From assembly GCA_030448005.1 (NCBI GenBank), contig JAUJNT010000002.1, forward strand, positions 579,456 to 628,824: a stretch of 49,369 nt of DNA, written 5' to 3'. The DNA is from Thermoleophilaceae bacterium (lineage in GTDB: Bacteria; Actinomycetota; Thermoleophilia; Solirubrobacterales; Thermoleophilaceae). Position 1 is the first letter of the stretch. The number at the start of each line of letters is the position of its first letter. Below are positions 9,289 to 9,789 of this stretch, in pieces. The notes under the pieces were generated by a model. It ran no database searches. It was not told the DNA's origin and worked only from the letters and a program-made list of their open reading frames with translations. A program made the position numbers and the translations under genes.

Positions 9289-9789
9289 GTGTTCGGCATC
9301 GCCAAGACGCGACAGGAGGTGCAGCCGCCCACCGATGCCAGGGCGCTCGAGGACATCGTCCTGCGTGACTGGTGCGGCCGGGACGTACGGCTCGGAGACG
9401 TGTGGTCGGAGAACCCGGCCCTGCTCGTCTTTCTTCGCCACTACGGCTGAACGTTCTGCCGGGACCACGCGGTCCAGTTGAACCGCGACCGTGAGAGCTT
9501 CGCCGCGGCCGGCGCGCTGCTGGCCGTCATCGGCCAGGGCACTCCGGCCAACGCCGCCTGGTTTCGCCGGGAGTTCGAGCTCGACATCGACCTGCTGGTG
9601 GACACCGACCGGCGCGCGTACGAGGCAGCCGGGACGAAGGTGGCCACGGTCGGCGAGCTCGTCGGCCCGAGGATGCTGGCGCGAGGCCTCAAGCGCGCTC
9701 TTGGGTCCGGGGTGATCCAGGGCAAGATCGTGGGTCACCCGGCCCAGCTCGGCGGGCTGATGCTCGTGACGCCCGGAGGGGGCTCATAA
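9289..9789 (+). CDS. Peroxiredoxin-like (AhpC-TSA_2/PRXL2) protein with in-frame TGA at the CxxC cysteine; 3'-truncated
   Basis: From GTG 9289 the frame is open except for one TGA (9448-9450, codon 54), then continues to TAA 9787-9789; total 166 codons. Around the TGA the protein reads LLVFLRHYG-TGA-TFCRDHAVQL, exactly where PRXL2-type thioredoxin-fold proteins have the catalytic CxxC. If TGA is selenocysteine the motif is UxxC. A GGACC-ACGC-GGTCC hairpin starts 12 nt after the TGA, at bacterial SECIS distance. The C-terminus stops at LGGLMLVTPGGGS, about 25 residues short of family members, because a tRNA 3' half interrupts it. So this is either a recombined selenoprotein gene or a pseudogene with a nonsense mutation; I cannot decide from one sequence. 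Confidence 0.65.
9462..9475 (+). other. Candidate bSECIS hairpin
   Basis: GGACC (9462-9466), loop ACGC, GGTCC (9471-9475). The loop G is 19 nt after the TGA. Position fits a bacterial SECIS element, but a 5-bp stem arises easily in GC-rich DNA. Confidence 0.35.

What the first reader, a model, noticed from the sequence alone, without database searches (positions are those of the whole stretch)
9289..9789. Possible selenocysteine in a peroxiredoxin-like protein, at the catalytic CxxC
The frame is open for 166 codons except one TGA, and that TGA falls exactly where PRXL2/AhpC-TSA_2 proteins have the first Cys of CxxC (RHYG-TGA-TFC). A hairpin with a G in its loop begins 12 nt downstream, at bSECIS distance. 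A chance nonsense mutation would have had about a 1-in-160 probability of hitting this codon. Against it: the gene's C-terminus is cut off by a tRNA fragment, so the gene may simply be decaying.
Basis: partly seen in the sequence, partly recalled or inferred. Interest (0 to 1): 0.8.

Follow-up and report, generated by a model that had tools for sequence, protein, structure and literature searches.

The report
Selenocysteine-containing peroxiredoxin-like enzyme, soil actinobacterium
The stop codon inside this antioxidant-enzyme gene is almost certainly read as selenocysteine, because distant relatives keep the same stop codon and the same RNA hairpin behind it and the genome carries the full selenocysteine machinery; it is a new example of a known kind of thing.

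Summary
The in-frame TGA (9448-9450) sits at the first position of an active-site UxxC in an AhpC-TSA_2/PRXL2-like protein. The genome holds selA, selB, selD and tRNA-Sec. A same-genus MAG has an intact copy with TGA at the identical codon (81% identity). TGA-containing homologues occur across Actinomycetota, with Cys forms at the same column; genomes G028-G030, which lack the machinery, have Cys. In 27 sequences its CAGUUG core is invariant and 6 of 7 stem pairs show compensatory changes. The modelled fold is thioredoxin/peroxiredoxin, closest to human prostamide/PGF synthase (PRXL2B). NCBIfam names the family 'SelL-related redox protein' (NF040769), so this is a new member of a known kind. 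The C-terminal truncation is a 182-nt gap relative to the sister gene. It also removes the 5' half of the only initiator tRNA-fMet found in the assembly, an essential gene, so an assembly error (or a second copy in a gap) is at least as likely as decay. Reads are needed to tell.

The parts
9289..9789 (+). SelL-related / PRXL2-like (AhpC-TSA_2) selenoprotein gene, 3'-truncated; the intact copy in the sister genome is 195 codons
9448..9450 (+). in-frame TGA read as selenocysteine, first residue of active-site UxxC (U-T-F-C)
   Evidence: TGA at same codon in relatives, Cys in others:
9457..9459 (+). resolving Cys codon (TGC) of UxxC
   Evidence: invariant column C57
9468..9487 (+). bSECIS hairpin: stem CGCGGUcC / GaACCGCG (one C.A mismatch in this copy), apical loop AGUU at 9476-9479, 25 nt after the TGA
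   Evidence: conserved structure and covariation; energy -9.5 kcal/mol
9780..9824 (+). 3' half of initiator tRNA-fMet gene; junction of a 182-nt deletion relative to the sister genome
   Evidence: full tRNA in L018 3645-3718
8305..9264 (-). divergent Ppx/GppA phosphatase gene, upstream neighbour
   Evidence: (PF02541, E 9e-59); a similar sequence lies upstream in L018

Best explanation
The gene encodes a selenoprotein of the SelL-related/PRXL2-like branch of the thioredoxin-peroxiredoxin superfamily. SelA makes Sec-tRNA(Sec) using selenophosphate from SelD. SelB with GTP binds the AGUU-capped mRNA hairpin 25 nt after the UGA and delivers Sec-tRNA(Sec) to the UGA codon, so translation continues into the C-terminal two thirds. 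The Sec sits at the N-terminal end of the first active-site helix in a U-x-x-C motif. It most likely attacks a peroxide or disulphide substrate and is resolved by the Cys three residues on, as a selenenylsulphide. Shown here: codon conservation, sel machinery, RNA structure with covariation, purifying selection on both sides of the TGA, predicted fold. Inferred: actual Sec insertion, substrate, catalytic cycle. The substrate and reductant are not known.
For: Full Sec machinery in the genome. Intact sister gene with the TGA at the identical codon, 81% identity. TGA at the same codon in G022, G027, G003, G002, G001 and in another family of the order, and in homologues across Actinomycetota. Cys at that column in the other orthologues, including G028-G030, which have no SelA, no SelD over cut-off and no strong tRNA-Sec. 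bSECIS: in 15 sequences 97.5% of cells paired and 6 of 8 pairs compensated. In 27 sequences 96.8% paired, 6 of 7 pairs compensated, 48 double-change cells against 16.3 shuffled (0 of 500 shuffles), slid versions 19-50% paired. The CAGUUG core is invariant in 27 of 27. The Leu codon in the loop is always TTG, against 14 of 251 Leu codons elsewhere in these genes, and is never TTG in the seven Cys orthologues of the family. dN/dS about 0.2 both upstream and downstream of the TGA (NG86 0.146/0.611 and 0.120/0.650). Fold: pLDDT 91, nearest solved structures human PRXL2B 9usa/9us9, whose catalytic Cys aligns with the Sec. The hairpin meets the published bSECIS model (loop 3-9 nt, G in first two loop positions mostly followed by G or U, 16-37 nt spacing, energy at most -7.5 kcal/mol; PMC13188914).
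Against: This particular copy lacks the last ~29 residues (one strand and the C-terminal helix of the fold). Its bSECIS stem has one C.A mismatch, and an alternative hairpin is predicted to be more stable (-14.0 against -9.5 kcal/mol). No protein or read evidence is available. Genome G007 of the same genus has SelA and SelD but no copy of this gene, so the gene is dispensable.
Confidence: 0.94

Rival explanations
1. The family is a genuine selenoprotein family, but this copy is a decaying pseudogene: a real 182-nt deletion removed its C-terminus and the neighbouring tRNA 5' half, and the bSECIS has begun to degrade. (This qualifies the best explanation for this one copy rather than excluding it.)
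For: Truncation and junction with the tRNA half; C.A mismatch at stem pair 27-34 in this copy only; the gene is absent in G007.
Against: The deletion would destroy the only initiator tRNA-fMet found in a 96%-complete 9-contig assembly, which a living cell cannot do without, so the deletion as assembled may not be real. The window branch is not longer than its sister's (0.08 against 0.22) and dN/dS is low.
Confidence: 0.35
2. The TGA is a chance nonsense mutation or a base-calling error at a Cys codon and is a real stop.
For: TGA is one base from TGC/TGT; the downstream part alone has a possible start (TTG 9478).
Against: The same TGA codon, followed by a covarying hairpin, recurs in independently assembled genomes across the phylum.
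Confidence: 0.02
3. TGA is read as Trp or another ordinary amino acid by a changed genetic code or suppressor tRNA.
For: Read-through of TGA is needed either way.
Against: Homologues of this very gene end at TGA in several relatives, and the TGA replaces Cys rather than Trp in the alignment; tRNA-Sec with anticodon TCA is present and the tRNA-Trp found has the ordinary anticodon CCA.
Confidence: 0.005

Closest known systems
SelL-related redox protein, NCBIfam NF040769
   Same: Intact sister and two Cys homologues score over the curated cut-off (124.1, 135.6 and 126.7 against 120).
   Different: The window's truncated copy scores 112.9, below the cut-off; its match stops where the C-terminus is missing.
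Eukaryotic PRXL2 family: PRXL2B (prostamide/PGF synthase; solved as 9us9/9usa), PRXL2A/SelU
   Same: Best solved-structure match by sequence and by fold; active-site motif RRFGCVVCR aligns with RHYGUTFCR. From general knowledge, SelU of fish and some other eukaryotes is a selenoprotein.
   Different: Bacterial, with a bSECIS inside the coding region instead of a 3'-UTR SECIS; about 20% identity.
AhpC/TSA family selenoprotein, pfam13911, UxxS (PMC9312934 Table 1)
   Same: Same Pfam domain, Sec in the active-site motif.
   Different: Motif UxxS there, UxxC here.
[quoted passage not shown] PMC2398784 'Prx-like 1')
   Same: Same superfamily and motif UxxC; the window protein also matches pfam00578.
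   Different: Better match to pfam13911 (47.9 against 35.6 bits); branch membership relative to those published sequences was not tested.

Membership tests
Bacterial selenoprotein (UGA-Sec) | In-frame TGA aligned with conserved Cys of homologues | tested here: met
Bacterial selenoprotein (UGA-Sec) | TGA conserved in two or more independent sequences | tested here: met
Bacterial selenoprotein (UGA-Sec) | bSECIS hairpin: loop 3-9 nt with G in first two positions, 16-37 nt after UGA, energy at most -7.5 kcal/mol | tested here: met
   loop AGUU, 25 nt, -9.5 kcal/mol in this copy; covariation; model from PMC13188914
Bacterial selenoprotein (UGA-Sec) | selA, selB, selC, selD in the genome | tested here: met
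Bacterial selenoprotein (UGA-Sec) | Sec present in the protein | not testable with these tools
   needs mass spectrometry or 75Se labelling
NF040769 SelL-related redox protein | Score over curated cut-off (120 bits) | tested here: inconclusive
   window copy 112.9 (truncated); intact sister 124.1, over the cut-off
PRXL2 / AhpC-TSA_2 (PF13911) | Pfam match over gathering score | tested here: met
   47.9 against 27 bits; 48.5 bits in the genome search
PRXL2 / AhpC-TSA_2 (PF13911) | Prostamide/PGF synthase or peroxidase activity | not testable with these tools
   needs enzyme assay

The most novel reading that the evidence does not exclude
The Actinomycetota carry a widespread PRXL2/SelL-type UxxC selenoprotein subfamily with its own bSECIS class (invariant CAGUUG core, strictly fixed 25-nt spacing, freely covarying stem), repeatedly exchanged between Sec and Cys, that is missing from published catalogues because annotation stops at the TGA.
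Probability: 0.45. Interest if true: 0.5.

Novelty: new member of a known kind. Interest (0 to 1): 0.4.

Why it matters
It adds a well-supported selenoprotein in Thermoleophilia-type actinobacteria, a class not mentioned in the selenoproteome papers searched here. It gives a large covariation set for one bSECIS class, which is useful for testing how SelB recognises the loop, and it shows Sec and Cys forms side by side in close relatives. Annotation that takes every TGA as a stop would split or truncate these genes.

Tried and rejected
The second stop (TAG or TGA) that the search reported inside some homologues was checked as a possible UxxU or UAG-Sec: in those that could be read the motif is plain UxxC and the further stops seen lie at the ends of the frame. 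Plasmid collection: no homologue. Rfam on the window: nothing. The tRNA half as an att site of an integrated element: not favoured here, because the sequence on its upstream side is the conserved chromosomal neighbourhood and no integrase was seen among the ORFs tested. A third group of TGA homologues (LRHxGULxCR) does not share the AGUU hairpin and was left out of the covariation count. Some phylum-level homologues (L145, L148, L150, L152, L154, L155, L158, L160) were not picked up by my motif scan and were not used.

Full report
Observation. The frame 9289-9789 has one in-frame TGA at 9448-9450 and ends at a TAA formed inside a tRNA fragment. Read through, it is an AhpC-TSA_2 protein (PF13911, E 2e-12). 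It scores just under the cut-off of NCBIfam NF040769 'SelL-related redox protein', while the intact sister gene scores over it. The TGA takes the place of the first Cys of the active-site CxxC.

Machinery. The genome (3.23 Mb, 9 contigs, 96% complete; the window is contig C1 579456-628824) has SelA (C1 178341-179606, 496.6 bits), SelB directly after it (C1 179654 onward, 320.9 bits), SelD (C1 558679-559605, 383.6 bits) and tRNA-Sec (C1 62318-62409, 68.2 bits; called tRNA-SeC with anticodon TCA by ARAGORN).

Homologues. The best public relative is a Thermoleophilaceae MAG (JACCUO010000050.1, held also as G005, same genus) with 81% identity. It has the same TGA and a complete C-terminus followed by an intact tRNA-Met. 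In 31 genomes of the family, TGA is at this codon in G000, G005, G022, G027, G003, G002 and G001. Cys is at the same column in G020, G021, G028-G030 and in second copies of G002 and G022. G028-G030, with only Cys, lack SelA, a SelD over cut-off and a strong tRNA-Sec. Two TGA genomes lack one part each: G005 (68% complete) has no SelA found and G001 (84% complete) no strong tRNA-Sec. This fits their incompleteness but is not proof of it. A wider search finds TGA orthologues in another family of the order (G234, G243, G385, G376, G372) and TGA homologues across Actinomycetota (G468, G508, G446, G566, G559, G478, G596, G427 twice, G484, G441, G504). In a tree the Sec and Cys forms are interleaved and need about 6 changes, of which well-supported branches force 3, so Sec/Cys exchange happened more than once; the direction was not established. 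The Cys form L021 still shows most of the stem, but with loop AGCU and a broken closing pair, which looks like a Sec-to-Cys change (inference).

bSECIS. The conserved hairpin is at nt 21-40 counted from the T of TGA (window 9468-9487), with loop AGUU. RNAalifold finds it unprompted as the only consensus helix. Covariation in 15 sequences: 97.5% of cells paired, 6 of 8 pairs with changes on both sides. In 27 sequences: 96.8% paired, 6 of 7 pairs, 48 double-change cells against 16.3 in shuffles, 0 of 500 shuffles as high, and the slid controls collapse to 19-50%. The shuffles do not keep relatedness; the slid controls do, and they give the same answer. The third base of the Val codon follows the first base of the residue three codons on (for example GUU with Asn AAC in G005 and G372, GUG with His CAC, GUC with Asp GAC in G385), so a synonymous choice tracks pairing. 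The loop Leu codon is TTG in 27 of 27, although TTG is 14 of 251 Leu codons elsewhere in the genes counted. The element meets the published model (PMC13188914).

Selection. Between the window and sister genes dN/dS is about 0.24 upstream of the TGA and about 0.18 downstream. The protein part beyond the TGA is therefore under purifying selection, at least over the time since the two genes parted.

Fold and mechanism. AlphaFold2 on the intact sister gives pLDDT 91 and pTM 0.88, with Sec54 just before helix 55-66. The nearest solved structures are human prostamide/prostaglandin F synthase 9usa and 9us9, whose C44/C47 motif aligns with U54/C57, then peroxiredoxin Q, AhpE and ResA. A two-residue redox centre (Sec attacks, Cys resolves) is the likely mechanism; substrate and reductant are unknown.

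The truncation. Relative to the sister genome 182 nt are missing, joining GGAGG of prx to GGGCTCATAACCC of the tRNA. The tRNA is the initiator tRNA-fMet (sequence CGCGGGG...GGGCUCAUAACCC, recognised from general knowledge). prx followed by this tRNA is conserved in other genomes of the family. In this assembly only the 3' half is found. The other three CAT-anticodon tRNAs are not close to it. Since the initiator tRNA is essential, either the gap is an assembly error or a further copy lies in an unassembled part. If the deletion is real, the last strand and the C-terminal helix of the fold are lost.

Comparison with the known. The kind is known: Prx-like UxxC selenoproteins, a pfam13911 selenoprotein with UxxS (PMC9312934), and SelL described as a Prx-like selenoprotein family found in both prokaryotes and eukaryotes (PMC2398784). 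I did not find this UxxC pfam13911 branch of Actinomycetota named in the passages read, but the entry 'Redoxin family protein, UxxC, MBA3499694.1' in that table could be the same and could not be compared.

Noticed in passing
window 9780-9824: Only the 3' half of initiator tRNA-fMet is found in this genome; the 5' half is not found in the 9 contigs, which points to an assembly problem or a copy in a gap.
   Followed up: partly
G021:C222:3419-3464, G022:C51:495-539, G010:C1:169596-169642, G003:C99:10447-10490, G009:C273:8128-8173 and others: Exact or near-exact 40-47-nt copies of the 3' half of tRNA-fMet in many genomes of the family, most with a full copy elsewhere: probably attachment sites of integrated elements that use this tRNA.
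   Followed up: no
L031, L032, L046: A second, more distant Prx-like subfamily (RHFGUPxCR) with TGA at the same site and the same AGUU-loop hairpin but a different stem sequence.
   Followed up: partly
L035, L135, L136, L137, L138: A third Prx-like group (LRHxGULxCR and the like) with TGA at the same site but without the AGUU hairpin; its SECIS is unidentified.
   Followed up: no
L021 1660-1719: Cys orthologue whose mRNA still holds most of the bSECIS stem with the loop changed to AGCU: a likely relic after Sec-to-Cys change.
   Followed up: partly
L153 (G427:C130:56116-57206): Two adjacent TGA-containing paralogues in tandem, each with the CAGUUG core.
   Followed up: no
window 40056-40169: Tandem repeat of a 39-nt unit (2.9 copies), a multiple of three, possibly inside a coding region.
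   Followed up: no
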